Source: Acetobacterium woodii DSM 1030
GTDB taxonomy: Bacteria; Bacillota; Clostridia; Eubacteriales; Eubacteriaceae
Direction: 5' to 3'
DNA: 64,000 bases
Assembly (NCBI RefSeq): GCF_000247605.1
Contig: NC_016894.1
Coordinates: 1,054,001 to 1,118,000, forward strand
A program made the position numbers and the translations under genes. A model generated the notes under the pieces. The model ran no database searches and had not been told where the DNA came from. It was given only the letters and a program-made list of their open reading frames with translations. Of the stretch, positions 13,629 to 26,968 are shown in pieces (within the stretch, counting starts at the first letter, position 1; each line of letters starts with the position of its first letter).

Positions 13629-13886
13629 ATGAAGAAATATATTTGTGTGACGATCGAGGATAAGATTGAAGCAAGCGGTAATGACTATAACAAAGGGTTT
13701 CGTAAATGTAGAACAAAGGAATTGGCGCAGGAAATTGAAGATATCTGCAATGATAATGATGAAAAAGGTTATGATCTCGTTTCAATTGTTCCCATTTTGC
13801 AAGGTGAACATGTTGTTATTTCAAACGACGGAGCCTGGGCAAACAGTACTACTGAGGGTGTGATTATTACGTTTAAAGCAAGATAA
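13629..13886 (+). CDS. Small DUF4177-like protein of unknown function
   Basis: An 85-residue soluble protein with a good AAAGGAG Shine-Dalgarno and its own terminator, so probably a real monocistronic gene. The central segment NDNDEKGYDLVSIVPIL and the final strand GVIITFKAR resemble the small DUF4177 fold, where a helix is followed by a G-(Y/W)-(D/E)-L-V strand and a terminal beta strand. The match is by eye and weak. No cysteine clusters, signal peptide or membrane segments. Function unknown. Confidence 0.7.
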   Translation: MKKYICVTIEDKIEASGNDYNKGFRKCRTKELAQEIEDICNDNDEKGYDLVSIVPILQGEHVVISNDGAWANSTTEGVIITFKAR

Positions 13887-13927
13887 AAAAAGTTCTATTC
13901 AGAGTTTCTTCTGAATAGAACTTTTTA
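13885..13927. terminator. Bidirectional terminator between the DUF4177-like gene and the TetR gene
   Basis: A long near-perfect inverted repeat (AAAAAGTTCTATTCAGA with its complement, short loop) with A and T runs on the outer sides. It can serve both converging genes and overlaps the last bases of the TetR gene. Confidence 0.88.
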
Positions 13928-14581
13928 AATTAGCAGTTTAATTTCCGAAAAATCATGGTTGCGAAAAAATAGCAGCGCTTCATAACTTACCCGATAAATA
14001 GATTTTTCCGGGATGCCAAAGCAACGAGCGGTGTTAGTGATAATCAGAATAGAAAAATCCTCGACAGGCATCTTTATTTTTTTTTCACAAAAGGCTCGGG
14101 TTAGATCCCGACGGGCTCCAAAATCGGCGATCAGTAAGGCATCAAATTCGATTGCACGAATTCGTAGGTTGAAGTCTCTTACGAATCCATGATAGATATC
14201 ACTCATGCGCAAGTGAAGAAACGGATAAAGTGATTCATTTTGCGAAATCTCATGGTAAAAATTGTTGACATTTGGATCAGTTAGCAGATAATTATACCAG
14301 ACCATAGTTAAGTAAAAATGGTTTTCAAAAGAATTGATCGGCTTATAACCAACTAGTTTTTCGCGCAGCGACTTTGTAATGGAATTGAGATAGTCTTCGA
14401 AAATTTTAGCAATAAAAGTATCTTTAGTAGCAAAATGATAGGTCATAGAACCTAAAGTAGTGGCAGAATGATCGGCGATTTGCTGAATTGTTGTAGCATT
14501 ATAACCTTGATTATAGAATAGTTCTTTGGCACTAAGAAAGATACGTTCTTTTGTCAATTCACCTTTTGTCATTTTTCGCAT
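13925..14581 (-). CDS. TetR/AcrR family transcriptional regulator
   Basis: A 218-residue repressor-type protein. The N-terminal helix-turn-helix is typical: LTKERIFLSAKELFYNQGYNATTIQQIADHSATT, then the MTYHFATKDTF segment equivalent to the conserved YxHFxxKexL block. The C-terminal part is a variable ligand domain. It is divergent from a GPH-type symporter, the classic arrangement for local control. The 280-bp intergenic region contains TTTACT/AGTAAA inverted repeats that overlap the symporter's -10 box and recur at the methyltransferase promoter at 20771-20808. The ligand is unknown; a methylated substrate of the nearby demethylase is a reasonable guess. Confidence 0.9.
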   Translation of the reverse strand: MRKMTKGELTKERIFLSAKELFYNQGYNATTIQQIADHSATTLGSMTYHFATKDTFIAKIFEDYLNSITKSLREKLVGYKPINSFENHFYLTMVWYNYLLTDPNVNNFYHEISQNESLYPFLHLRMSDIYHGFVRDFNLRIRAIEFDALLIADFGARRDLTRAFCEKKIKMPVEDFSILIITNTARCFGIPEKSIYRVSYEALLFFRNHDFSEIKLLI

Positions 14582-14687
14582 TTAAAATCTCCTTAAAAAG
14601 TTTTCCAGAAAATAATTTTAGCATTAAGTTCAAAAATAAACAAGAAAAAAAAGGGAACATTTGATATAAAAAAAAATATAAGTGAAG

Positions 14688-14708
14688 TTTACTAAAAAAA
14701 ACAGTAAA
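14688..14708. promoter_or_regulatory. Possible TetR operator, inverted half-sites
   Basis: TTTACT at 14688-14693 and its complement AGTAAA at 14703-14708, separated by an A-rich 9 bp. The half-sites are the same as in the two sites described at 14756 and 20741, but the spacing differs, so this could be chance in AT-rich DNA. Confidence 0.35.
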
Positions 14709-14733
14709 ATACATTAGATTTAATAAAATATTC

Positions 14734-14769
14734 TTGACAAAATGACTGTAAAGGGTTACTATTTAGTAA
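14734..14769 (+). promoter_or_regulatory. Promoter of the GPH symporter with overlapping palindromic operator
   Basis: TTGACA at 14734-14739, 17-bp spacer, TACTAT at 14757-14762. A perfect 14-bp palindrome, TTACTATTTAGTAA (14756-14769), covers the -10 box and the expected transcription start. A repressor bound here would block initiation. The adjacent divergent TetR gene is the obvious candidate. Confidence 0.7.
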
Positions 14770-14861
14770 GTCGATGTAATATTACTGATTTGACAAAAAA
14801 CGATAATGAAATTGCCGGAAATTTTGTTATCAAAAAAATGAAAATTGAAGGAGGCTCTTTT

Positions 14862-16250
14862 ATGGAAAAAAAACCCTTAAGTTCAGGGCTTAAAAAATTC
14901 TTTGGTGTCGGGGATCTTGGTTTTACTTTGATGTCGAATGTTGAAGTATTTTATTTTGCATATTTTTTAACGAATATTGCAAAATTTGATTTAGGAACAA
15001 CTGCAATAATTATGACCTTAACAAGTACAGTAGATATGGTATTGTCACCTTTCTATGGCGGATTTATCGATGCTCTTAAACCAATGAAATGGGGAAAATA
15101 CCGATCGTACTTATTGGTAATACCACCAATTGTAGTGGTTCTTTATACATTGATGTTTACGGTTATTGGTACCGGAATAGTACCAGTTGTTATTATCTGT
15201 GTAGCTTTTATAACTTCACACGTTGCATGGAACTTCTCGTATGTTGCTAATATAGCATTAATACCTACAATTTCGTCGTCACCTGAAGATCGAACACAAT
15301 TATCCGCAACACGAGGCGCATATGCAAATGTTGGGAAAATTATTTTCTCAGCAATGGGATTGGCAACCATTTTATGGGTTGGTGGAGTAGTCGGAAATCC
15401 TGTATTAGGATTCACTATTTCGGCATTCGCAATGGCTTTGATTTACTGGATAGGTTATTTCATTCACTTCAAAATGACGAGTGGATACGAAGTAACCTAT
15501 GAAGAAGGCGCTGCTGTAGATACCAATACTGCAAAGAAAGAAAAAATATCCATTGGTGATATGGCCAGATCATTGGTTCAGAACCCGCATTTGTTAGTAT
15601 TGCTTTTAGCAGATGTAGCACGTTGGACAGTTAACTTTGTCTGTGCAGGATCAGCAGTATATTTCTTTACTTATGTAACAAACGATGTTGCAATGTTCAG
15701 TGTTTATTTGTTAGTTGCCAATATTATGGCAGTAATTGGCTCATATTTAAGTAAATATGTTGCCGCAAAATTATCAACAAGAACAGCTGCACTCATTGGC
15801 TGCTACGGATTAGGGGCATTTTTAATCATCTGTCAATTCTTTGTTTCTAATATAATGCTTGTCCTAATCGTCCTTTCATGTGCTCAGTTCTTCTTAGGAT
15901 TCCTTTACGCATTGATGGTTGCTTTATATGGTGATGCATCGATTTACAGCGAATGGAAAACAGGAAAAGCAGCATCAAGTTGGGTTATGGGGTTATCGAA
16001 TTTACCATTAAAACTGGGTATCTTTATCAAAGGCTTAATCATTCCAGCAATGTTAGCTGCCTGTGGATTCGTTGCAAATATGGATCCAGCTACTGCCACA
16101 CCGGAATTAAAAGCTGGAATTACGACTTTATTCTGTACAATTCCAGGTTGCACGGTTTTAGCAGGAGCTATTTTATTAACTTTTGGATACCGTTTAACGA
16201 CAGAAAAAATCACACAATATCAAACTGAAATAAATGCCAGAAATAAATAG
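14862..16250 (+). CDS. GPH-family (MelB-like) cation symporter, MFS_2
   Basis: A 462-residue membrane protein with about 12 hydrophobic segments, of the glycoside-pentoside-hexuronide:cation symporter type. Diagnostic stretches are the N-terminal GVGDLGFTLMSN and the loop SPFYGGFIDALKPMKWGKYRSY, matching the family's D-x-x-x-x-(R/K)-x-G-x-(Y/F)-R-P/Y region. I chose ATG 14862 because of the AAGGAGG Shine-Dalgarno 7 nt upstream; the frame stays open to 14742, but that extension overlaps the promoter. Members near demethylase genes may import glycosides, ethers or betaines; the substrate here is unknown. Terminator at 16294. Confidence 0.88.
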   Translation: MEKKPLSSGLKKFFGVGDLGFTLMSNVEVFYFAYFLTNIAKFDLGTTAIIMTLTSTVDMVLSPFYGGFIDALKPMKWGKYRSYLLVIPPIVVVLYTLMFTVIGTGIVPVVIICVAFITSHVAWNFSYVANIALIPTISSSPEDRTQLSATRGAYANVGKIIFSAMGLATILWVGGVVGNPVLGFTISAFAMALIYWIGYFIHFKMTSGYEVTYEEGAAVDTNTAKKEKISIGDMARSLVQNPHLLVLLLADVARWTVNFVCAGSAVYFFTYVTNDVAMFSVYLLVANIMAVIGSYLSKYVAAKLSTRTAALIGCYGLGAFLIICQFFVSNIMLVLIVLSCAQFFLGFLYALMVALYGDASIYSEWKTGKAASSWVMGLSNLPLKLGIFIKGLIIPAMLAACGFVANMDPATATPELKAGITTLFCTIPGCTVLAGAILLTFGYRLTTEKITQYQTEINARNK

Positions 16251-16293
16251 TAAAATAATAGTAAAAGAGATAACAAAAAAGTAATTACATAAC

Positions 16294-16340
16294 AAATAAG
16301 AAGCCATATTCAAATTACTTGATAGGCTTCTTATTTATTT
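16294..16340 (+). terminator. Terminator after the GPH symporter
   Basis: AAATAAGAAGCC pairs with GGCTTCTTATTT across a 19-nt loop, followed by T/A-rich sequence. Confidence 0.75.
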
Positions 16341-16418
16341 AATAAGATGAATCGAATAATATCGCATAAGATCAAAAAATTGCTATCATTTAAATCAAAT
16401 ATAATAGTGAGGTGAATT

Positions 16419-17813
16419 ATGAATAAAAAACAGATAATCGGATTGATCATCAGCATTGCGGTGCTTATTGCCGTTTTTTTTCTACCCATTCCGATGGGTC
16501 TAACAGATAAAGGACTGATAACCATTGGCTTACTGCTCTTCTTTTTAATCATGTTGATTTCTGAAGCGCTTCCCGTTGGGGTTATTTGTTTTCTTTGTCT
16601 GGCGCTTTTACCAACGCTTGGGGTCACCAAAAATCTGACAACCGGTTTAAGCGGGTTTACCAATACGATTCTGTTTTTTGTACTGGCGTCATTTGGACTT
16701 GCCGAAGCGGTGACTTCAACACCGATTGTGCAACGAATTTTACATGGGCTTCTTAAAAAATTTGGCAAAGATGTAAAAACATGTATACTGGCAATTATGA
16801 TAACAGGTGCCTTAGTTTCAGCCATCGTAACAGATGTCCCTTCAGTTGTCGTTTTTATGGGAATTGGCGCTAGTTTTCTCAAGCTGTTTAATAACGAAGC
16901 GGATCGTCAAAAAACTGCGAAATCATTAATGATGGGGATTCCGATTTCCGTCATGTTAGGAGGATTGATGACTCCGGCAGGAAGCGGCATTAACATTTTA
17001 ACGATTGATCTCTTAAAAAATCAGGCTGGCATCCAGATTTCCTTTATTCAGTGGATGGTTTGCAGTATTCCTATTATCATTGTAATGGTCCCGCTGGCAT
17101 GGTATGTATTAACCAAAATATACCCACCGGCAGAAATTGAAAATGCAGATATTCAAGATTATCTGGCAATGATCGAAGTAAAAGAAAAAGTCGGAGGCAG
17201 AGAGCTGAAAGTTATCGTTATTGCCTTGATAATGGTTATGTTTTGGCTTTTAAGCTCATTTTTCCCGGCCATTGAAGTAACTGTGGTCGCACTATTGGGG
17301 TGTGTCAGCTTCTTTTTACCCGGTATTAAAATTCTAACATGGGAACGATATATGAAGGCGGTGAGCTGGATTTCGTTTATCTTGATTGGAACGGTTTTAT
17401 GTATTGCTAACACCATTGTTGCAAACGGTGTCAGTGAATGGTTTGTCACTTATGTGTTGCCATCATCCTTTACCTTTTCAATCATGGGTGGAGTCTTTTT
17501 TGTGGCCGTGATGATTTTTATTGTGATCTTGATTGTACCGGTAGCGCCAGCTTTAATCGGAATTTTGACCCCGGTAATCATCAGTCTGGCAGAAACAACA
17601 GGAATCAATCCGGCGCTCCTGATCATTACACTCGGACTCTGTGCCGGTAATTGCTACTTATTTCCCATCGATACGATTCCATTAATTACTTATACAGCAG
17701 GTTATTATAAAATGACTGATATGCCGAAGGCGACCATATGGCTCCAACTGGCCTTTGTTGGATTGGCCACGCTTTGGCTGCCGATTGCGGGAGAACTTAT
17801 TGACCTCGTATAA
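16419..17813 (+). CDS. DASS/SLC13-type sodium:anion (dicarboxylate or sulfate) symporter
   Basis: A 464-residue integral membrane protein with about 11-12 hydrophobic segments. The early block LISEALPVGVICFLCLALLPTLG and the pattern TDVPSVVVFMGIG (compare the SNT motif region of the family) suggest the divalent anion:Na+ symporter family. The second repeat is seen around VPVAPALIGILTPVIISLAE. A GTGAGGTG Shine-Dalgarno precedes ATG 16419. It is bounded by terminators on both sides, so it is a single-gene unit between the GPH symporter and the methyltransferase operon. Substrate cannot be assigned. Confidence 0.85.
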   Translation: MNKKQIIGLIISIAVLIAVFFLPIPMGLTDKGLITIGLLLFFLIMLISEALPVGVICFLCLALLPTLGVTKNLTTGLSGFTNTILFFVLASFGLAEAVTSTPIVQRILHGLLKKFGKDVKTCILAIMITGALVSAIVTDVPSVVVFMGIGASFLKLFNNEADRQKTAKSLMMGIPISVMLGGLMTPAGSGINILTIDLLKNQAGIQISFIQWMVCSIPIIIVMVPLAWYVLTKIYPPAEIENADIQDYLAMIEVKEKVGGRELKVIVIALIMVMFWLLSSFFPAIEVTVVALLGCVSFFLPGIKILTWERYMKAVSWISFILIGTVLCIANTIVANGVSEWFVTYVLPSSFTFSIMGGVFFVAVMIFIVILIVPVAPALIGILTPVIISLAETTGINPALLIITLGLCAGNCYLFPIDTIPLITYTAGYYKMTDMPKATIWLQLAFVGLATLWLPIAGELIDLV

Positions 17814-17822
17814 AAATAATTT

Positions 17823-17954
17823 ATGTCAGAGAAAAGCAGGTTACTGACGCGTGAAAAATTCATTGTCATAAACAATGAACCTGGACGGTATTTAGAAACG
17901 ATCTACCAGACGTTTTTTAAAAATTTTTCCAATGATACTCCTAAAAAAATATGA
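17823..17954 (+). CDS. Possible 43-residue peptide or gene remnant
   Basis: An open frame of 43 codons starting 10 bp after the DASS gene stop, with a mixed, protein-like composition (LLTREKFIVINNEPGRYLET) and ending just before the terminator at 17957. No Shine-Dalgarno is visible, and an internal 8-bp inverted repeat (17859-17866/17872-17879) argues for RNA structure instead. It may be a remnant of a lost gene. I do not recognise it. Confidence 0.22.
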   Translation: MSEKSRLLTREKFIVINNEPGRYLETIYQTFFKNFSNDTPKKI

Positions 17955-17956
17955 GA

Positions 17957-17997
17957 AATAAAAAAGAAAACGCAACTCAAGCGTTTTCTTTTTTATT
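17957..17997. terminator. Bidirectional terminator between the DASS symporter and the methyltransferase operon
   Basis: A perfectly symmetric 17-bp inverted repeat with a 7-nt loop; A-rich left and T-rich right sides supply U tracts on both strands. It ends the + strand symporter and the - strand corrinoid operon. Confidence 0.9.
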
Positions 17998-18035
17998 AGT
18001 TATAATGTTGATAAATAAGGTTTAATGATGATATA

Positions 18036-18662
18036 TTAAGCAACTAATTCCTTGGCTTTAACTGCGGCGCTACCAGCATCAGGAGCAAATCCATCAGCGC
18101 CAATTTCGGCTGCGTATTCTGGTGTAACCGGTGCACCACCAACAATCACTTTAACATCTAAACCACTGGCTTTAATGGTTTGTACGGCTTCTTTAAGAGC
18201 AGGCATTGTCGTGGTCAATAGACCTGAACAGGCAACTAAGGTGACGTTTTCGTTTTCTTTTACAGCTTCAACAAATCGTTCTGCTGGGACATCTACCCCA
18301 AGGTCAACCATCGTAAAACCAGCGCTTTCGATCATCATCGAAACTAGATTTTTACCGATATCATGTAAATCGCCGGCAACAGTTCCGATAATACAGGTTC
18401 CTAAAGATGCTGAAGTATCACCAGCTAAAAGTGGTCGTAAAACATCAACGCCTTTTGCCATTGCTTTGGCCGCAATTAACATTTCCGGAACAAAAATTTC
18501 TCCTGAAGAAAATTTTTCACCAACAACACTCATTGAATCAACCATTGCTTGAAGGATATCAGCTGCTGAACTACCTTCGTCTAAGGCTTCCTGTACTAAT
18601 CCCGGAATCAGTTTAGTTTTACCAATTTCTACTTTTGCTTTTACTTCTTCAATTTTTGACAT
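18036..18662 (-). CDS. Methyltransferase cognate corrinoid protein
   Basis: A 208-residue methyl carrier of the MtaC/MtbC/MtvC type. The N-terminal helical cap domain (about 1-85) precedes a cobalamin-binding Rossmann domain with the DxHxxG motif DLHDIG (residues 98-103); His100 would be the lower cobalt ligand. The downstream SGLL and GGAPVT motifs are also typical. It accepts a methyl group from the substrate methyltransferase and passes it to methyl-THF methyltransferase, both encoded upstream in the same - strand operon. Being last in the operon and preceded by a hairpin may adjust its dosage. Confidence 0.95.
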   Translation of the reverse strand: MSKIEEVKAKVEIGKTKLIPGLVQEALDEGSSAADILQAMVDSMSVVGEKFSSGEIFVPEMLIAAKAMAKGVDVLRPLLAGDTSASLGTCIIGTVAGDLHDIGKNLVSMMIESAGFTMVDLGVDVPAERFVEAVKENENVTLVACSGLLTTTMPALKEAVQTIKASGLDVKVIVGGAPVTPEYAAEIGADGFAPDAGSAAVKAKELVA

Positions 18663-18698
18663 GCTATTCTCCTATTTAAATTAATTTAATAATTTTAT

Positions 18699-18731
18699 TC
18701 GCTATTGGTATTGTGTGTAAACACCAAGCGA
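18699..18731 (-). other. Intercistronic hairpin upstream of the corrinoid protein gene
   Basis: TCGC...TTGGT pairs with ACCAA...GCGA in the 91-bp gap between the methyl-THF methyltransferase and corrinoid protein genes. No U tract, so possibly an mRNA processing or stabilising structure. Confidence 0.4.
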
Positions 18732-18753
18732 TAATGGTTCATAATATTAGAAA

Positions 18754-19557
18754 TTATTTTTTCAGACCGAAGATGCCTTCACGATAGGCGCCGATATATT
18801 CCATACAATAGTCATCTTCCCCAAGCAATGCTTCAGTTGCATAGATGATTCCCATTAAATCACCATTTGTCGGGTCAAGAATAGCACTGTCCAAACCAGC
18901 GTTCATAGCCAGAACGGTAAAACCCATGTTAACCATTTTCCGAGCTGGCAGGTTGAATGAAATATTACTGACTGCGCCGGTCACATGAATAGTTGGGTAT
19001 TGTTCTTTAATACTTTTAATAACTTCGACCACCATTGCAATACCATCTTCGGAGGTACAAAGCATTTCAACCAGAGGATCGATGTGCATGCGGGAAGGAT
19101 CGATGCCATAGGCATTCACTTTTGCCATTAAATCAGCGAATACATCCAGTCGATCTTTAGCCGTTTTAGGAATGCCTTTGTCACTGTTAAGCAGTGCTAC
19201 ACATTCCCATTTTGTATCGGCAATCACTTTAAATGCTGCATCAACCTTATCACCTTCCAGTGAGACCGAATTAAATAAACCCGGTTTGTTACAATATTTC
19301 ATTGCTTCAATACAGGTGTACACATTAGGGCTATCCACCGCAATCGGGGTATCAGTAACTTCCTGAACCAGATCGATTAACCATTTCATGGTTTCCAGTT
19401 CGATGTCATCATCAACCGAGGCACAGACATCAATATAATCGACACCAGCTTCAGTTTGAATCTTAGCCAGATTTTTGATAAAATCCGCATCTTTAGCTGC
19501 GATTGCTTTTGCAGTAGATGGAATTGCACCGTTAATTTTTTCGCCTATGATTATCAA
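18754..19557 (-). CDS. Methyltetrahydrofolate:corrinoid methyltransferase (MT2)
   Basis: A 267-residue pterin-binding TIM-barrel enzyme that moves the methyl group from the methylated corrinoid protein to tetrahydrofolate. The N-terminus IIIGEKINGAIPS and the segments GVDYIDVCAS, PIAVDSPN and the N-containing VSNISFNLPAR strand are characteristic of the AcsE/MtvA class. Length is standard. It sits between the URO-D-type substrate methyltransferase and the corrinoid protein, giving a complete MT1-CP-MT2 set. Its product, methyl-THF, feeds the Wood-Ljungdahl genes at 26969-33888. Confidence 0.93.
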   Translation of the reverse strand: MIIIGEKINGAIPSTAKAIAAKDADFIKNLAKIQTEAGVDYIDVCASVDDDIELETMKWLIDLVQEVTDTPIAVDSPNVYTCIEAMKYCNKPGLFNSVSLEGDKVDAAFKVIADTKWECVALLNSDKGIPKTAKDRLDVFADLMAKVNAYGIDPSRMHIDPLVEMLCTSEDGIAMVVEVIKSIKEQYPTIHVTGAVSNISFNLPARKMVNMGFTVLAMNAGLDSAILDPTNGDLMGIIYATEALLGEDDYCMEYIGAYREGIFGLKK

Positions 19558-19616
19558 TTTATTGCCTCCTAAGACAGTTATTTATGGTAATAATTATAAA
19601 ATATTAATTTAAAGGA

Positions 19617-20597
19617 TTAAAACATTTCCTTTGACATTTTGTCGATGGCGTCGTTGCTTGCTTCATAAACGCCTGGGAAAGAGCTGATCCCTAAACCTTG
19701 ACAAGAGCCAGGAATAAAGTAAAGTTTTCCACAATCATGACATGCTCTAGTAAATTCTTCTTCAACTTGTTCTTTTGTCCATTCAGGATGATCGATGACA
19801 CCACTATGAACACCACCCATAAAGCTAATCTGGCCGCCGTATTCTTTAATCATGTTAGGAATATCATTAGTGGTCATGACCCCTTGCCAAATATCAATAC
19901 CCATTTCAATCATGTAAGGTACTAAGGTAGCAGCATAACTATCACTATGATGAACAATTAGTTCAACCCCGTTTTCTTTATAGAAACCATAGATTTTTTT
20001 GTATGCTGGCAAGAAGAATTCTTCGAACATAGCAGGAGAAAGGAACGTTGAAATTTGGCTGCCCCAGTCATCATGATGAAAAACAACTTCTGGTTTGAGG
20101 TAAGTAACTAATTCTTTAGCATAAGCCAGTTCAAATTCGGTGATATAATCGATTAGTTCAGCCATTGCTTCGGGTTCTTCATAGAAACTCATTAAAGCGT
20201 TTTCCATACCCATTAAATAGTGAGTTAGTTCAAAAACACCAGGTGCAATAAATGCGGTTACATATTGATTATCATGATCAACGGCTTTAGCATCAGCAAT
20301 CGCTTGTTCCCAGGCTTCAGCAGGGAAAACAACGTTTGGAGCCTTGACGTAGTCGCGCCATTCGGTGATATCTTTTAAGAGAATGTGATCAGCATCGTGG
20401 ACAGGAAAAGAACCAAGTTGTCCTTCTGGCCAACGAATCGTGACCCCCCATTCATTGACAACTTCTTCGCCGATGGCAGGTTTGATTCGGCTAGATGGAA
20501 CGCTCATGATCATTTGCATAAATTCATATTGTTTGACAAATCGATCCGGATTTCCACCAGTTAGGACTTCTTTTAAATTTTCTTTTACAGTTAACAT
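19617..20597 (-). CDS. URO-D family methyltransferase (substrate:corrinoid MT1)
   Basis: A 326-residue protein of the uroporphyrinogen decarboxylase superfamily, used by MtaA, CmuA and O-demethylase MT1 enzymes. I start it at 20597 (MLTVKENL) because of the AAAGGAGG Shine-Dalgarno; the frame is open further upstream but runs through the leader. Candidate metal ligands are H174-H175-D176-D177, H216-H217-S-D219 and C299. The His-X-Cys pair of classical MtaA-type zinc sites is replaced by H-S-D. As the first gene with CP and MT2 behind it, it most likely demethylates the substrate. Which methylated compound is used cannot be deduced; phenyl methyl ethers are the best-known substrates of related systems. 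Confidence 0.85.
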   Translation of the reverse strand: MLTVKENLKEVLTGGNPDRFVKQYEFMQMIMSVPSSRIKPAIGEEVVNEWGVTIRWPEGQLGSFPVHDADHILLKDITEWRDYVKAPNVVFPAEAWEQAIADAKAVDHDNQYVTAFIAPGVFELTHYLMGMENALMSFYEEPEAMAELIDYITEFELAYAKELVTYLKPEVVFHHDDWGSQISTFLSPAMFEEFFLPAYKKIYGFYKENGVELIVHHSDSYAATLVPYMIEMGIDIWQGVMTTNDIPNMIKEYGGQISFMGGVHSGVIDHPEWTKEQVEEEFTRACHDCGKLYFIPGSCQGLGISSFPGVYEASNDAIDKMSKEMF

Positions 20598-20740
20598 AGT
20601 TTTGTAGCCTCCTTTAATTTGGTAAGTTGAAAGATTGAACAGTTTGACAAGGATTTCATAATGTATGAGGATCGAAATTGAAAGATAAAATCCGGATACA
20701 AAAAACTTGCAAATTGCTTTGATTAGTATAGTCACATTCG

Positions 20741-20760
20741 TTTACTAATATTTTAGTAAA
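20741..20760. promoter_or_regulatory. Perfect 20-bp palindrome in the methyltransferase leader
   Basis: TTTACTAA, a 4-bp centre, then TTAGTAAA. It lies about 10-35 bp downstream of the predicted transcription start on the - strand. It shares its half-site with the operator-like repeats near the TetR gene (14688, 14756). Confidence 0.65.
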
Positions 20761-20770
20761 TAGACTTCTA

Positions 20771-20808
20771 TTTACTGTTAGTATAAACGGTTGCATTATC
20801 TTTGTCAA
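20771..20808 (-). promoter_or_regulatory. Promoter of the methyltransferase operon, with overlapping repeat
   Basis: On the - strand: TTGACA (20808-20803), exactly 17 bp, TATACT (20785-20780). The -10 lies inside an imperfect palindrome TTTACT-GTT-AGTATAAA (20771-20787 on the + strand). The 5' leader to the URO-D gene is about 175 nt. In the rest of this 474-bp intergenic stretch (20598-21071) I see only the 20-bp palindrome and the terminator at 20983; 20820-20980 shows no gene. Confidence 0.8.
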
Positions 20809-21071: not shown

Positions 21072-22532
21072 TTAATCTTGATGGGCATTAATATAATCGA
21101 CAATTTCGTTTTTTCCGACCCGGTTAACGCCACTGTGTTCGACATCAAAACTTGAATCAATTTCATGACCAAGCTCTCGTTCCATCACTTCGACAACGCG
21201 AGGACGACAGAAAGTGCCTTGACACCAGCCGCACCCGGCTCGTGTTCGCCGTTTGATTCCATCAACCGTTGTTACCGGAATGCCACGGTTCATTGCATCA
21301 ATGATGGTTGCTTCATCAACCTGTTCGCAGCGGCAAATAATTTTTTCAGGGCTTGAAGCGATGTCAATGAGTGGTTGAATTTCTTTGAGTGGTTTTAGTT
21401 CGGTTAAGGTAATGATTGGTTTGCGGTAGGGATTATAGTTGGGATCTTCCTCAAAGGGACAATTTAATTCTTTTAAGAGTTTAAGAACTAATTCGGCAAT
21501 CGCCGGCGAGGAAGTCAGCCCCGGCGATTGAATGCCGGCACAATTAATAAAACCATTAACCGGCGTTGCTTCAATAATAAAGTCATCGGTAGAACTGACA
21601 GCGCGGATACCAGTATAGCTACGGATAAATTGTTTAATGTTAAGTTTGTCAGTGGTGTGCTTAGCTTCGTTAAAAATCTTTAAAAGTCGTTCCGAATGGG
21701 TCGATTTATCAGCAATATCTTCATTAACAGCATCGGGTCCAATCAGCAGATTTCCGTAGAATGTTGGGGTGACGAGAATTCCTTTTCCCATCTTCGTCGG
21801 CATCTGGAACAATACATTATTAATGATATTAGCAGAACCGCGAACCATTAGAAGGTATTCACCGGAACGAGGAGTGATTGTGAAGTTGTCGATACCAACC
21901 ATTCGAGCGATTGTATCAGAGCAAACGCCGCCAGCGTTTATAACGTAATGCGCGGCGTATTTTTTTTGGTTGTGATCGGTTAATTCAAACCCGTCAGGTG
22001 TTTTGACGATGTCGATAATTTCCGTATTCAGCGCCGGTTCAACGCCGTTTTCAACCGCATTTTCAGCAAGCGCGATGGCCATTTCATAGGGTGAACAGAC
22101 ACCGGCACCTTTACAGTAGAGGGCATATTTGACATCAGGATTGACATTTGGTTCCATTGCCATGATTTGATCATGATCAATAATTTCCAAGTCGTCCAGA
22201 CCGTTAGCCAGACCATTTTCATAAAGTTCTTTCAGTTTCGCCAATTGGTCATCTTCAAAGGCAAGAACCAGCGAACCGATCTTATCAAAACCAAAATGCA
22301 GCTCTTCGTTGAGTTGGTCAAATTGTTTTCTTCCTTTGTAACATAAACCACCCTTAACTTTTGCGTGGGATTCGGCAAAACCTCCGTGAACGATGGCTGA
22401 ATTAGCTTTTGTAGCGCCCATGGATACATCGTTTTCTTTTTCAAAAACGATAACAGATAATTGGTAACGACTTAATGCTCGGGCAATGGATGTTCCAATT
22501 ATTCCAGCACCGATTATAGCAACATCATACAT
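21072..22532 (-). CDS. FAD-dependent oxidoreductase with C-terminal BFD-type [2Fe-2S] domain (GlpA-like)
   Basis: A 486-residue protein in two parts. The N-terminal DAO/glycerol-3-phosphate-dehydrogenase-like domain starts with the dinucleotide fold GAGIIG (residues 8-13). The C-terminal BFD-like domain carries C400-x-C402 and C434-x2-C437, the four-cysteine iron-sulfur pattern of GlpA-type and related enzymes. Such proteins oxidise a hydroxy or amino acid and pass electrons to an iron-sulfur partner. It is 43 bp downstream of an asparaginase-like gene and probably co-transcribed. Whether it takes part in demethylation, for example oxidising the demethylated product, or supplies electrons for corrinoid activation is open. 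Confidence 0.85.
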   Translation of the reverse strand: MYDVAIIGAGIIGTSIARALSRYQLSVIVFEKENDVSMGATKANSAIVHGGFAESHAKVKGGLCYKGRKQFDQLNEELHFGFDKIGSLVLAFEDDQLAKLKELYENGLANGLDDLEIIDHDQIMAMEPNVNPDVKYALYCKGAGVCSPYEMAIALAENAVENGVEPALNTEIIDIVKTPDGFELTDHNQKKYAAHYVINAGGVCSDTIARMVGIDNFTITPRSGEYLLMVRGSANIINNVLFQMPTKMGKGILVTPTFYGNLLIGPDAVNEDIADKSTHSERLLKIFNEAKHTTDKLNIKQFIRSYTGIRAVSSTDDFIIEATPVNGFINCAGIQSPGLTSSPAIAELVLKLLKELNCPFEEDPNYNPYRKPIITLTELKPLKEIQPLIDIASSPEKIICRCEQVDEATIIDAMNRGIPVTTVDGIKRRTRAGCGWCQGTFCRPRVVEVMERELGHEIDSSFDVEHSGVNRVGKNEIVDYINAHQD

Positions 22533-22575
22533 AGCAGTCTCCTTCTTAAAACTAAAATTAAAACAGATAAGTTTT

Positions 22576-23631
22576 TTATATTACATACCCATTTACGGGG
22601 GCATCTTTCAAAAATTCATAGAAAAATTCCCGATTGAGATAACTTTGAGGTGAACACTCATGTTGATTATAAGCGAAATTCAATTTGGTGACAGCGGCTT
22701 CAAAAGAGATGTTTTCTAATGGAATACCGCCCGCGGCAATGAGCTCCTGACAAGATAAATAAAGATCTCCATGAATGTTTTTATAAGAAATCAGGTAATG
22801 GTCGACGTTTGGATTATTTTTGATAAAGGCGAGTAAGGAGGTACCGTTTTCGCCAATAATATTGCCGCTACCACAATGGTATAGTGAATGAAGTACCGCT
22901 CTGACTGGCCGTTTTCGCAGGTCAATGACATCATAGTTTAAACCGGGGTAGGCTCTTAAAGCCAATATTTCGTTGCGAAACTCGACGATCATGGGAATAT
23001 CATTGGTCACTGGGTTATAAAGCTTAAGCATGGTTGGGTTTTTGGGTGAAGGCGTACAACAAAGACCACGCTGATCGTAAGTCGCAAACGGTTCGCCGAA
23101 GCTGGAAAAATCATCTTTTAGCCAATCAGCTTCTTGCAGGCGAGAAGCGAGATGAACGTAAGTGATATGATCACTATTTTCATAGATCGCATAAAATCCA
23201 GGGAGTTTCAAATTATAAATAAAGTCAACACTGGCAGAAAAATTAGTAATGGCATTACTATCAGGTTCGCCGATGGCATAATTTGCAGCAACTAAAACAA
23301 TCGGAATTAAAGGAGCATCAAGACCATAACAAAGGGCAGCGGCGGTATAGGGAAGCGTATCAGAGCCATGAGCGATGATAACACCCAGATAATCGCTCAG
23401 CTGATAGGACTCTAAGGTTTTGATGATTTGCAGCCAATGTTTGGGTTCGGCATTTTCGCTAAGGATATTAAAAGGGCACACAACTTCAAACTCGACTTCG
23501 TTTTTGTTTTGATCCCGATAAATTGATAATAAGTCGTTGCCACGACTGGCATCTACGTTGATACAGTGATCATTAACTGAACTTCCAATGGTACCACCAG
23601 TTAACAATAATAAAATTTTAGCGTTCTCCAT
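22576..23631 (-). CDS. Asparaginase/glutaminase-family amidohydrolase
   Basis: A 351-residue protein with both catalytic signatures of the L-asparaginase superfamily: TGGTIGS (11-17) and HGSDT (88-92). ATG 23631 has an AAGG Shine-Dalgarno; an in-frame upstream extension falls in the leader repeat. No signal peptide, so cytoplasmic. Overall divergence from housekeeping asparaginases and its position inside a demethylase locus suggest a special amide substrate, but this is inference. First gene of a two-gene operon with the FAD oxidoreductase; its promoter region carries a striking 15-bp inverted repeat (23658-23718). Confidence 0.82.
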   Translation of the reverse strand: MENAKILLLLTGGTIGSSVNDHCINVDASRGNDLLSIYRDQNKNEVEFEVVCPFNILSENAEPKHWLQIIKTLESYQLSDYLGVIIAHGSDTLPYTAAALCYGLDAPLIPIVLVAANYAIGEPDSNAITNFSASVDFIYNLKLPGFYAIYENSDHITYVHLASRLQEADWLKDDFSSFGEPFATYDQRGLCCTPSPKNPTMLKLYNPVTNDIPMIVEFRNEILALRAYPGLNYDVIDLRKRPVRAVLHSLYHCGSGNIIGENGTSLLAFIKNNPNVDHYLISYKNIHGDLYLSCQELIAAGGIPLENISFEAAVTKLNFAYNQHECSPQSYLNREFFYEFLKDAPVNGYVI

Positions 23632-23657
23632 AGTTAACCTTCTTTCCGGAAAAATTG

Positions 23658-23728
23658 AATTATTGGTAATTGGGAAATAAATCATAAAGTTATTAGTTTT
23701 TCACAATTACCAATAATTAGGGATTATA
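23658..23728 (-). promoter_or_regulatory. Promoter and 15-bp inverted repeat upstream of the asparaginase-like gene
   Basis: Extended -10 on the - strand, TGG-TATAAT (TATAAT at 23728-23723). Immediately downstream are two perfect inverted copies of AATTATTGGTAATTG (23658-23672 and 23704-23718), 31 bp apart. Each copy is itself nearly palindromic (AATTA-CCAA-TAATT), as expected for a dimeric repressor site. In RNA the two copies could also form a long hairpin. Confidence 0.7.
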
Positions 23729-23752
23729 CCATCGAATGAAGCCAAAAGGAAT

Positions 23753-23788
23753 AAAAAAGCAAACAACATAAAATGGTATTTGCTTTTT
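23753..23788 (-). terminator. Terminator of the RACo gene
   Basis: AAAAAAGCAAA and TTTGCTTTTT arms with a 15-nt loop; the - strand RNA ends in six U. Located 20 bp after the RACo stop codon. Confidence 0.8.
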
Positions 23789-23807
23789 GGTAACAATTAA
23801 ATTAGGT

Positions 23808-25604
23808 TTAGATCATGATATTTTGGCCAAGGGTAGTATTTTGCATGTAGATATTGGCAAAATTTGGATCGGAGGCTAATTCAATATGGGTTGTTCGTTT
23901 GGGAATCGCTTCACAAAGTTTGGCTTCGTCGGCAGAAAGCAAGAAAAGTTGAGCTCCGGTTCCGGCACCGTTGCCAATGGAACGGATGGGAACGCCCTCA
24001 ATTTTAGGGAGTAAACCAATAAATTGTGCGTTTTCGATATCGATGTAATTGCCGAAAGCACCAGCAAGAGCGATTTCTTTAAGGTCTTCACCTTTTATTC
24101 CAAATTTTTCAGCTAACATACAGCAACCGGTAAAAATAGCGGCTTTGGCTAATTGAACCGAACGGATATCTTTTTGAGTAATAATCAATTCTTTACCATT
24201 AGGGTTATCTTCAGATTTTACAAACACAAAGTATCGTTGCCCTGCTTCATCGGTTTTAAAACGATCTTTTAAGGGGTGATTATCAAGGTCATCGCCTTTG
24301 ACAAAATTACCGCGGTCATAAATAATTTTTTCTCTAAAGAGGAAGGCAATGGCATCAATGATTCCCGATCCGCAAAAGCCGATGGGCGGGACATTGCCAA
24401 TAACGTGACACTCAATTTCATCATTAACCATCGCAATTTTTTCAATAGCGCCACTGGTGCCACGCATGCCCATATGAATGCCGGCACCTTCCAGTGCGGG
24501 CCCACAGGCGGTAGAGGCAACAAAATATTTATTATGATTGCCGATGGCAATTTCACCATTCGTGCCGAGATCGATCATTAGACGATAAGCATCATCTTTA
24601 GGAAGTCCCAATAGAACCGAGGTCGTATCAGCACCAACAAAGCCGCCTAATAACGGGAGGAAAGTAATTTTTCCAAATGGGTTAATATTAATATTTAATT
24701 CATTGGCATTAAGGATGACAATGTCTTGTGAAACACCGGTGAATGGCGAAAAACCTAAATGCAAAGGATTTAAGCCCAGAAATAGAGTGGCCATCGTACT
24801 GTTTCCGCAAAAAACACAATCGTAAATTGCATCAGATGATATTTTTGATTCATAAATTAGGTTTGATAAAATATCATTAATCGTTTCATGGATGGCATGT
24901 TGGATCGTTTTGAGATTTTCGGGAGAAGCAGAAGCATACTCAATCCGACTGATGACATCACCGCCAAAAGAAATTTGTTTGTTTAGTGATGAATGCTGAT
25001 GGATCAATACACCGGTAGTCAGATCGTAAAGATACCCGACAACGGAAGTGGTTCCGATATCAAAGGCGACCCCATAAGCTTTTAATTTTTCATTACTGGC
25101 TAATAAATCAATGATTTCATTGTTATACAAGAAAAGATTTAGAAATGTGTTGTTTTTTGTGTGAAAGACTTCAGATGATTTGCGGAGCACTTTGATCGAA
25201 GTCATGGTCACCGGAAGATCGAGAATAGTACGGACGGTTTCAAGATCATAAGAACACATTTCAGTTTTGAATTCCGCAAAAGGGATTGTTACAACGCGAG
25301 TCTTAGGGTTGAAACTTAATTCACCGTTATCACTTACTTCAAGAATCTGAGATATAGCGGCTTCTTTCGAAATAAGAATACTCATATCTTCAGAAACTAG
25401 GTGTTGGCAACCAAGGACTTCAGAAACTAAATCGTTTTCACGGATGGTTACAAGACACTTTTTACAAGTCCCTTTTCCACCGCAAACTAAATTTTGAGGA
25501 AAACCGACTTGAGCACATGCCTCAGCAACGGTTATACCAGCTTCAACAAGAATATTTTTGTCCAATAAAGGAAAAAATACACGGATGGTTTTTAATGATG
25601 ACAT
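23808..25604 (-). CDS. Reductive activator of corrinoid proteins (RACo-type, ferredoxin + ASKHA ATPase)
   Basis: A 598-residue protein that would use ATP and a low-potential [2Fe-2S] cluster to reduce inactive Co(II) corrinoid back to Co(I). The N-terminal ferredoxin domain has C41-x5-C47-x2-C50 and C66. A linker follows, then the DUF4445/ASKHA domain beginning at GVAFDIGTTS (about 178-187), with later phosphate motifs around MIDLGTNGEIAIG and ALAGAFGN. It is transcribed from its own promoter, so it may serve several corrinoid systems. It matches the activator usually encoded with acetogen O-demethylases. Confidence 0.93.
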   Translation of the reverse strand: MSSLKTIRVFFPLLDKNILVEAGITVAEACAQVGFPQNLVCGGKGTCKKCLVTIRENDLVSEVLGCQHLVSEDMSILISKEAAISQILEVSDNGELSFNPKTRVVTIPFAEFKTEMCSYDLETVRTILDLPVTMTSIKVLRKSSEVFHTKNNTFLNLFLYNNEIIDLLASNEKLKAYGVAFDIGTTSVVGYLYDLTTGVLIHQHSSLNKQISFGGDVISRIEYASASPENLKTIQHAIHETINDILSNLIYESKISSDAIYDCVFCGNSTMATLFLGLNPLHLGFSPFTGVSQDIVILNANELNININPFGKITFLPLLGGFVGADTTSVLLGLPKDDAYRLMIDLGTNGEIAIGNHNKYFVASTACGPALEGAGIHMGMRGTSGAIEKIAMVNDEIECHVIGNVPPIGFCGSGIIDAIAFLFREKIIYDRGNFVKGDDLDNHPLKDRFKTDEAGQRYFVFVKSEDNPNGKELIITQKDIRSVQLAKAAIFTGCCMLAEKFGIKGEDLKEIALAGAFGNYIDIENAQFIGLLPKIEGVPIRSIGNGAGTGAQLFLLSADEAKLCEAIPKRTTHIELASDPNFANIYMQNTTLGQNIMI

Positions 25605-26926: not shown

Positions 26927-26968
26927 ATGCAGATGTTAAAAATTTATCAAAGTATTGGAGGAAATAAT

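What the first reader, a model, noticed from the sequence alone, without database searches (positions are those of the whole stretch)
14688..20808. Putative regulon: shared TTTACT/AGTAAA palindromes at the symporter and methyltransferase promoters
Seen: a perfect 14-bp palindrome TTACTATTTAGTAA covers the -10 of the GPH symporter. Six kilobases away, an imperfect palindrome with the same half-sites (TTTACT-GTT-AGTATAAA) covers the -10 of the methyltransferase operon, with a perfect 20-bp palindrome (TTTACTAA-4-TTAGTAAA) just downstream. Both promoters are TTGACA-17-TA(C/T)(T/A)(A/C)T. Inference: the TetR protein at 13925-14581 controls import and demethylation together. Caveat: the spacing between half-sites varies (3, 4, 8 and 9 bp), and the DNA is AT-rich.
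Basis: partly seen in the sequence, partly recalled or inferred. Interest (0 to 1): 0.75.

Follow-up and report, generated by a model that had tools for sequence, protein, structure and literature searches.

The report
TetR regulon for methyl-donor use
In the acetate-making bacterium Acetobacterium, one local TetR-type regulator very probably switches on together the importer and the methyl-removing enzymes for one methylated food compound, and its likely DNA binding sites are now defined by comparison across related species.

Summary
In the window three half-site patterns each occur exactly twice, once at the symporter promoter and once at the methyltransferase (mtBAC) promoter; 0 of 200 shuffles reached that. 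Comparing 32 equivalent promoters from three genera shows the unit is the half-site TTTACT/AGTAAA on a fixed grid: an operator TTTACT-N8-AGTAAA (O1 upstream of -35 at the symporter, O3 downstream of the start at mtB), and AGTAAR just after the -10 followed by N10-WTTACT. TetR orthologues exist in 15 of 19 genus and 21 of 40 family genomes, near the symporter or methyltransferase genes. A 19-genome scan with the operator hit five loci not used to define it; all five are upstream of mtB. Best reading: a TetR-family local repressor co-controlling uptake and demethylation. Binding, ligand and sign of control are untested; motif copies are not more numerous than controls, only their location is striking. 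A new member of a known kind; I found no published regulator in the searches listed.

The parts
13925..14581 (-). TetR-family regulator, 218 aa
   Evidence: Pfam TetR_N 4.6e-09; orthologues in 15 of 19 genus genomes, own included, and 21 of 40 family genomes at 48% identity or more; predicted model pLDDT 93.0
14615..14643 (-). putative tetR promoter (TTGTTT-17-TAAAAT, TGC before the -10), largely but not wholly conserved in the 12-row alignment
   Evidence: read by eye from the sequence and alignment; inference
14688..14708 (+). operator O1 of the symporter promoter, TTTACT-N9-AGTAAA (N8 in the other 11 genomes)
   Evidence: both halves (WTTACT, AGTAAA) without mismatch in 12 of 12 genomes, 24-26 bp upstream of -35
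14734..14762 (+). symporter promoter: TTGACA (14734-14739), 17 bp, TACTAT (14757-14762)
   Evidence: AGTAAR exact in 9 of 12, WTTACT at N10 exact in 11 of 12 genomes
14862..16250 (+). MFS_2 / GPH-type symporter, putative importer
   Evidence: Pfam MFS_2 2.5e-67; NCBIfam gph model 188.8 bits, below its cut-off 231.35
16419..17813 (+). DASS / Na_sulph_symp family transporter, possibly read through from the symporter; no operator of its own seen
   Evidence: Pfam 1.7e-47; beside the symporter in 5 of the 11 congener loci with the orthologous symporter
18036..18662 (-). mtC, corrinoid protein
   Evidence: Pfam B12-binding domains; best NCBIfam match MtgC, below its cut-off
18754..19557 (-). mtA, methyltetrahydrofolate:corrinoid methyltransferase type
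   Evidence: Pfam Pterin_bind; PRK07535 334.6 bits over cut-off 259
19617..20597 (-). mtB, URO-D-type substrate methyltransferase
   Evidence: Pfam URO-D 4.6e-18, run on 19617-20600; start codon at 20595-20597
20725..20730 (-). possible further half-site (TATACT on the - strand), 10 bp beyond O3
   Evidence: hexamer in this register ends in ACT in 13 of 14 mtB promoters, is TATACT or AATACT in 10 of 14
20741..20760 (-). operator O3 of the mt promoter, TTTACT-N8-AGTAAA
   Evidence: only exact copy in the genome; second half AGTAAA with 0 mismatches in 11 and 1 mismatch in 3 of 14 genomes
20771..20776 (-). half-site O2 (AGTAAA on the - strand) 3 bp after the mt -10
   Evidence: exact in 14 of 14 mtB promoters
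20780..20808 (-). mt promoter: TTGACA (20803-20808), 17 bp, TATACT (20780-20785); spacer ends in TGCAACCGTT, identical in 11 of 14 genomes

Best explanation
The TetR-family protein encoded at 13925-14581 is a local transcriptional repressor. Without inducer, its dimers bind TTTACT-N8-AGTAAA operators and the half-sites at the start regions of the symporter promoter (14688-14786) and the mtBAC promoter (20725-20808), keeping RNA polymerase off both. When a methylated substrate, or its demethylated product, is present it binds the TetR C-terminal domain, the protein leaves the DNA, and the importer and the corrinoid methyltransferase set are made together, feeding methyl groups into the Wood-Ljungdahl pathway. 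Shown here by computation: the sites, their fixed grid, their conservation beside the TetR gene in three genera, and their concentration at these promoters. Inferred: that this TetR is the binder, repression rather than activation, and the ligand (my guess: a methoxylated aromatic or its phenolic product).
For: TetR orthologue in 15 of 19 genus genomes: divergent from the symporter in 12, directly behind mtC in 3. O1 at 12 of 12 symporter promoters and the AGTAAA-N10-WTTACT-N8 grid at 14 of 14 mtB promoters. Genus scan with TTACTAAWAWAAYAGTAA (0-1 mismatch, 19 genomes): 30 places, 25 at these two promoter classes, including 21 of 21 exact ones; five of the 25 lie at loci not used to define the motif, all upstream of mtB. 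In genus g3 (TetR 57-61% identical) O1, O2 and O3 stand on the same grid before a non-orthologous URO-D-type methyltransferase gene in 5 of 5 genomes, with one or more mismatches in one half-site or another; in g5 (48%) the right half of O1, O2 and the left half of O3 remain before an orthologue of that gene. The DNA-binding domain is more conserved than the rest in 20 of 20 orthologues (g3 L141: 82% against 53%), and the helix segment TLGSMTYHF is identical in 19 of 20. G013 (100% complete) has no orthologue of the nearest TetR paralogue, yet has AGTAAT-N10-TTTACT at a divergent symporter-paralogue promoter facing mtB; G012 (85% complete) likewise. O2 lies at the start region and O3 downstream of it, usual places for repressor sites (inference).
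Against: No binding or expression data. O1 lies about 25 bp upstream of -35, where an activator could also sit. At symporter promoters the right half of O3 is not conserved and O2 is degraded in 3 of 12 genomes (L043, L045, L047). G006 and G008 have the mtB site but no TetR orthologue was found (86% and 83% complete; the mt contigs end inside mtA). Controls: reversed patterns are as frequent or more so (27 places against 30; 53 against 38; 206 strand matches against 122), so only location, not copy number, is notable. In three of five g3 loci a second TetR gene lies between this TetR and the promoter (L141, L142, L144; not in L143, L145 or g5 L146). A TetR paralogue of about 30% identity goes with clusters whose promoters carry a similar N10 site. 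Many genomes are close relatives, so counts are not independent.
Confidence: 0.8

Rival explanations
1. The sites are a shared operator, but the binder is another regulator (a paralogous TetR or a global regulator), and the neighbouring TetR does something else.
For: Own genome has 19 TetR-like matches to this protein, itself included; a paralogue family goes with other methyltransferase clusters whose promoter site is of the AGTAAW-N10-WTTACT type; a second TetR gene is nearer the promoter in three of five g3 loci.
Against: In 21 of 21 family genomes with the orthologue at 48% or more, at least one promoter in the table carries the sites; the second g3 TetR is missing from L143, L145 and g5 L146, which keep the sites; in own genome the N8 operator occurs once and the N10 pair at two promoters and two coding or frame-edge places, which does not fit a global regulator; complete G013 lacks the nearest paralogue.
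Confidence: 0.1
2. The TetR protein acts as an activator, or as repressor at mtB and activator at the symporter, from O1.
For: O1 is upstream of -35 and is the best conserved site of the symporter promoter (12 of 12).
Against: AGTAAR right after the -10 is common to nearly all promoters (29 of 32 exact); no mtB promoter has both halves of O1 exact (0 of 14) but all have O3 downstream of the start; near-consensus -35/-10 at 17 bp should need no activator (inference).
Confidence: 0.08
3. The palindromes are chance products of AT-rich promoter DNA; only the core promoter is conserved.
For: Control patterns occur as often as the motif or more often in the same genomes.
Against: 0 of 200 shuffles for three patterns; 25 of 30 operator hits in 19 genomes are at two promoter classes; in 14 mtB promoters 15 of 18 half-site columns are invariant against 1 of 10 in the N10 spacer.
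Confidence: 0.02

Closest known systems
TetR-family local repressors of catabolic operons, e.g. RolR of Corynebacterium (PDB 3aqt, with resorcinol)
   Same: TetR fold; best VIA-align row for the predicted model, Z 15.1, 191 residues, rmsd 3.7; RolR's role as repressor of resorcinol catabolism is recalled
   Different: 17% identity; FadR follows at Z 14.0; ligand unknown here; two separate promoters and a half-site grid
Corrinoid-dependent O-demethylase and chloromethane (Cdm) methyltransferase systems of acetogens (PMC13222342; passages and Discussion read)
   Same: URO-D-type substrate methyltransferase, corrinoid protein and tetrahydrofolate methyltransferase genes together
   Different: That paper treats the enzymes; it says no regulatory system was identified for cdmBCA and that regulation of the 26 systems of A. 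dehalogenans remains largely unexplored
QacR-type multi-dimer operator binding
   Same: QacR is among the solved structures matched by the profile, over profile positions 11 to about 142
   Different: Here N8 operators at 30-bp steps and a further one about 62-64 bp upstream; multi-dimer binding not tested; QacR's mode of binding is recalled

Membership tests
TetR family of transcriptional regulators | N-terminal TetR_N HTH and all-helical C-terminal domain | tested here: met
   Pfam PF00440 36.4 bits, cut-off 24; 11 helices, pLDDT 93.0; TetR-fold entries lead the PDB comparisons
TetR family of transcriptional regulators | binds a palindromic operator as dimer(s) | not testable with these tools
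   conserved palindromic sites beside the gene; no binding assay
TetR-type local repressor | regulator gene next to or divergent from the target, operator at the promoter | tested here: met
TetR-type local repressor | represses, and is released by a small-molecule inducer | not testable with these tools
   none
Corrinoid methyltransferase system (O-demethylase-like) | URO-D-type MT I, corrinoid protein and MT II genes together | tested here: met
   own locus; same set in 9 of 14 fetched congener TetR loci, two more cut by a contig end and one (G001) completed by L147
Corrinoid O-demethylase | acts on methoxylated aromatics | not testable with these tools
   MtB gives only sub-cut-off MtaA/CmuA-family matches and no sequence match in the PDB copy
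GPH:cation symporter | passes the NCBIfam gph (TIGR00792) cut-off | tested here: not met
   188.8 bits, cut-off 231.35; Pfam MFS_2 is met; hence 'GPH-type', substrate unknown

The most novel reading that the evidence does not exclude
Acetogens of this family run a set of paralogous TetR-operator pairs, one per methyl donor, all descended from one AGTAA/TTACT half-site grid: each pair couples a symporter to its own methyltransferase set, and half-sites drift symmetrically as pairs diverge (AGTAAW...WTTACT in congeners against TGTAAA...ATTACA at the own-genome symporter-paralogue promoter, genome 1790496-1790519). Several TetR dimers would occupy one promoter on a 30-bp lattice.
Probability: 0.3. 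Interest if true: 0.7.

Novelty: new member of a known kind. Interest (0 to 1): 0.5.

Why it matters
A. woodii is reported to encode 30 methyltransferase systems (PMC3315566, passages), and a 2026 paper states that regulation of the 26 systems of A. dehalogenans remains largely unexplored (PMC13222342). This gives one such system a candidate regulator gene, a defined operator and two target promoters in what appears to be a laboratory acetogen, so substrate sensing can be tested directly; the inducer would also point to the substrate, and the pair is a candidate inducible switch for acetogen work.

Tried and rejected
Rejected: separate palindromes with 3- and 4-bp spacing; the alignments show a half-site beside the -10. 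Rejected as targets: the same 14-mer (on the other strand) at genome 1733755, inside an open frame that by eye begins like a HAD-type hydrolase (no family search; L003), and the two other N10 pairs of own genome, inside or at the edge of open frames (L185, L186). The other five of the seven TTACTA-N0..8-TAGTAA places were, apart from L003, fetched in part but not analysed for function.

Led nowhere or weak: PDB sequence search with MtB, no match. NCBIfam gave no match over cut-off for TetR or MtB. Fold comparison puts RolR first, but FadR is close and scores up to about 13 are common for helical bundles, so the ligand stays open. The first window pattern, with a 6-base spacer and 2 mismatches, gave chance-level hits (5 against 5.34 expected). 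Seven other MtB-paralogue loci of own genome show no TTACT-n-AGTAA repeat with n 2-10 (L151-L157), nor does a 77%-identical MtB locus in G003 (L159). The 79%-identical MtB of G013 was not examined. Of 94 family-wide N10 places (my count from the listing), 31 are at the promoter classes discussed, 4 at symporter-paralogue clusters, 2 are the own-genome off-targets; the other 57 were not examined. The 20 off-target places and the 5 were not examined beyond the tblastn. The cre-like spacer element was not tested. The flank-conservation figure was not obtained because the script stopped there.

Paper searches for a published regulator: (listings; passages of six papers; one Discussion section). 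Nothing seen describes a TetR operator for these systems; most subscription journals are not held.
Full report
Where it lies. The window is bases 1,054,001-1,118,000 of a single 4,044,777-bp contig. That length matches my recollection of Acetobacterium woodii DSM 1030, and an fhs gene at 26927 beside methyl-branch genes fits fhs1 = Awo_c09260 of PMC10284823 (passage); the tools did not name the genome, so species and genus names here are inferred. Genes: TetR (13925-14581, -), MFS_2/GPH-type symporter (14862-16250, +), DASS transporter (16419-17813, +), and mtB-mtA-mtC (20597 down to 18036, -): URO-D-type methyltransferase, pterin-binding methyltransferase, corrinoid protein.

Observation. Each of three patterns (TTACTA-N0..8-TAGTAA, TTTACT-N8/9-AGTAAA, AGTAAR-N10-WTTACT) has exactly two copies in the window, one per promoter, and none of 200 dinucleotide shuffles reached two. 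In the whole genome the N8 operator occurs once and the N10 pair at four places.

Orthologues and gene order. TetR orthologues (67-85%) are present in 14 of 18 congeners. In 11 of these the symporter is divergent from TetR, as here. In three of those 11 (L044, L045, L047) the symporter is followed on the same strand by mtB and mtA, and by mtC in two; in L045 the contig ends in mtA. In G011, G012 and G013 TetR follows mtC on the same strand without the orthologous symporter between. In G001 mtB lies about 14 kb from TetR. Beyond the genus, orthologues occur in five g3 genomes (57-61%) and one g5 genome (48%).

Footprints. Alignment of 12 TetR-symporter intergenic regions and of mtB upstream regions showed islands of identity. 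Tabulated on 32 promoters (12 symporter, 14 mtB, 5 g3, 1 g5): AGTAAR 2-3 bp after the -10 is exact in 29 of 32 (not in L043, L045, L047); WTTACT 10 bp further is exact in 31 of 32 (not in L043); AGTAAA 8 bp further has 0 mismatches in 11 and 1 in 3 of 14 mtB promoters, 1 in 5 of 5 g3 promoters, and is not conserved at symporter promoters or in g5. O1, 24-26 bp upstream of -35, has both halves exact in 12 of 12 symporter and 4 of 5 g3 promoters; L145 and g5 keep only its right half; no mtB promoter has both halves exact (0 of 14). The script could choose among offsets 1-4, N9-11, N7-9 and O1 distances 18-33, so the uniform outcome is informative; but the genomes are related (L141-L144 nearly identical) and counts are not independent events. 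In the 14 mtB promoters 15 of 18 half-site columns are invariant, 1 of 10 in the N10 spacer and 4 of 8 in the A-rich N8 spacer, so the N8 spacer is itself well kept within the genus.

Grid. Measured from the AGTAAR after the -10, the best positions for AGTAAR are 0, +30 (mtB, g3) and -62 (symporter) or -64 (g3), and for WTTACT +16, +46 (mtB) and -76 or -78. Dimer-sized operators thus repeat at 30-bp steps and at about twice that upstream. Whether a dimer bridges the N8 or the N10 arrangement cannot be told: O1 stands alone as N8, the symporter start region as N10. Cooperative binding is a guess.

Prediction test. TTACTAAWAWAAYAGTAA was scanned over 19 genus genomes with one mismatch allowed: 30 places, 25 at symporter or mtB promoters (21 of 21 exact, 4 of 9 with a mismatch), 5 elsewhere; the reversed control pattern gave 27 places. 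Own O1, with its N9 spacer, is outside this pattern. Five of the 25 lie at loci that I had not used for the alignment (G001:C9:82794, G004:C54, G006:C134, G008:C210, G012:C82): all five are upstream of mtB. G007 and G009, without TetR orthologue and with best mtB matches of 71% and 64%, have no hit at an mtB. Exact TTTACT-N8-AGTAAA in 40 family genomes: 38 places, 18 on target; control 53 places. AGTAAR-N10-WTTACT in 40 genomes: 94 distinct places by my count, 31 on target (29 at the three promoter classes, 2 at the symporter-paralogue promoters of G012 and G013); 122 strand matches against 206 for the control. So the motif is not over-represented; its location is.

Second genus. In g3 the sites precede a URO-D-family gene that is not orthologous to mtB, in 5 of 5 genomes, with an orthologue (72%) at the g5 promoter. 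A symporter of 33-35% identity lies downstream in 5 of 5 g3 loci and a DASS transporter in 4 of 5. The regulator and its sites thus stay with 'transporter plus methyltransferase' while the enzymes differ. In L141, L142 and L144 a second TetR gene and another URO-D gene lie between this TetR and the promoter; L143 has only the URO-D gene there, L145 and L146 neither.

Regulator. DNA-binding-domain identity exceeds that of the rest in 20 of 20 orthologues; the segment TLGSMTYHF is unchanged in 19 of 20, with Met to Leu in g5; seven paralogues compared differ. The AlphaFold2 model has mean pLDDT 93.0. The best VIA-align row is RolR with resorcinol (Z 15.1, 191 residues, rmsd 3.7), then a Thermus FadR (14.0). 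This mildly favours a small aromatic ligand and proves nothing.

Mechanism. Sites at and just after the start region of both promoters, near-consensus core promoters, and a divergent or operon-end regulator gene are the anatomy of a local repressor lifted by a pathway compound. Shown: sites, grid, conservation, location. Inferred: binder, sign of control, ligand, joint induction. The substrate may be a methoxylated aromatic; but the URO-D superfamily also contains the chloromethane enzyme CdmB (PMC13222342, Discussion read), so this is open.

Paralogues. Four congener clusters with a paralogous symporter (G001, G008, G010, G018) have AGTAAW-N10-WTTACT downstream of a TTGAC-TACAAT promoter. A TetR paralogue (75-82% identical to that of own genome) lies in the same cluster in G001, G010 and G018 and on another contig in G008. 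Own genome reads TTGTAAATATAATATTAATTACAA there, a symmetric change, although the helix segment of its paralogue equals that of G010. G013, complete, lacks that paralogue (best match, 34%, is this TetR itself; G012, 85% complete, likewise at 33%), so there the site most likely belongs to this TetR. This is the basis of the bolder reading.

Verdict. The kind is known; this regulator and operator were not found in print in the searches named under Tried and rejected.

Noticed in passing
14740-14756 and 20786-20802: The 17-bp promoter spacers hold a conserved TGNAAN(C/G)G element (TGTAAAGGGT, TGCAACCGTT; TGAAAAGGTT in g3), resembling a catabolite-repression cre site (consensus recalled). Own genome has a CcpA-like protein at 1589747-1590739, 321 bits, below the model's cut-off of 442.35.
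   Followed up: partly
L220:10497-10520 (genome 1790496-1790519): A symporter-paralogue promoter of own genome carries TTGTAAATATAATATTAATTACAA where four congener clusters have AGTAAW-N10-WTTACT; a TetR paralogue lies in the same cluster.
   Followed up: partly
14800-14861: CCGGAAATTTT (CCGGATATTTT in L043) is conserved in the symporter leader of 12 of 12 genomes, ahead of AAATTT-like runs before the ribosome site; a leader hairpin is possible.
   Followed up: no
13629-13886: Small 85-aa ORF without Pfam match, kept beside TetR in 12 of 14 congener loci.
   Followed up: no
L146:10299-10318: In the g5 genome an ATTACT-N8-AGTAAA site lies at the start of the TetR gene itself, as autoregulation would want.
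   Followed up: no
21072-25604: An FAD oxidoreductase, an asparaginase-like and a RACo-type corrinoid-activation gene lie beyond mtB here and in several congeners; none of the three site patterns occurs there in the window.
   Followed up: no
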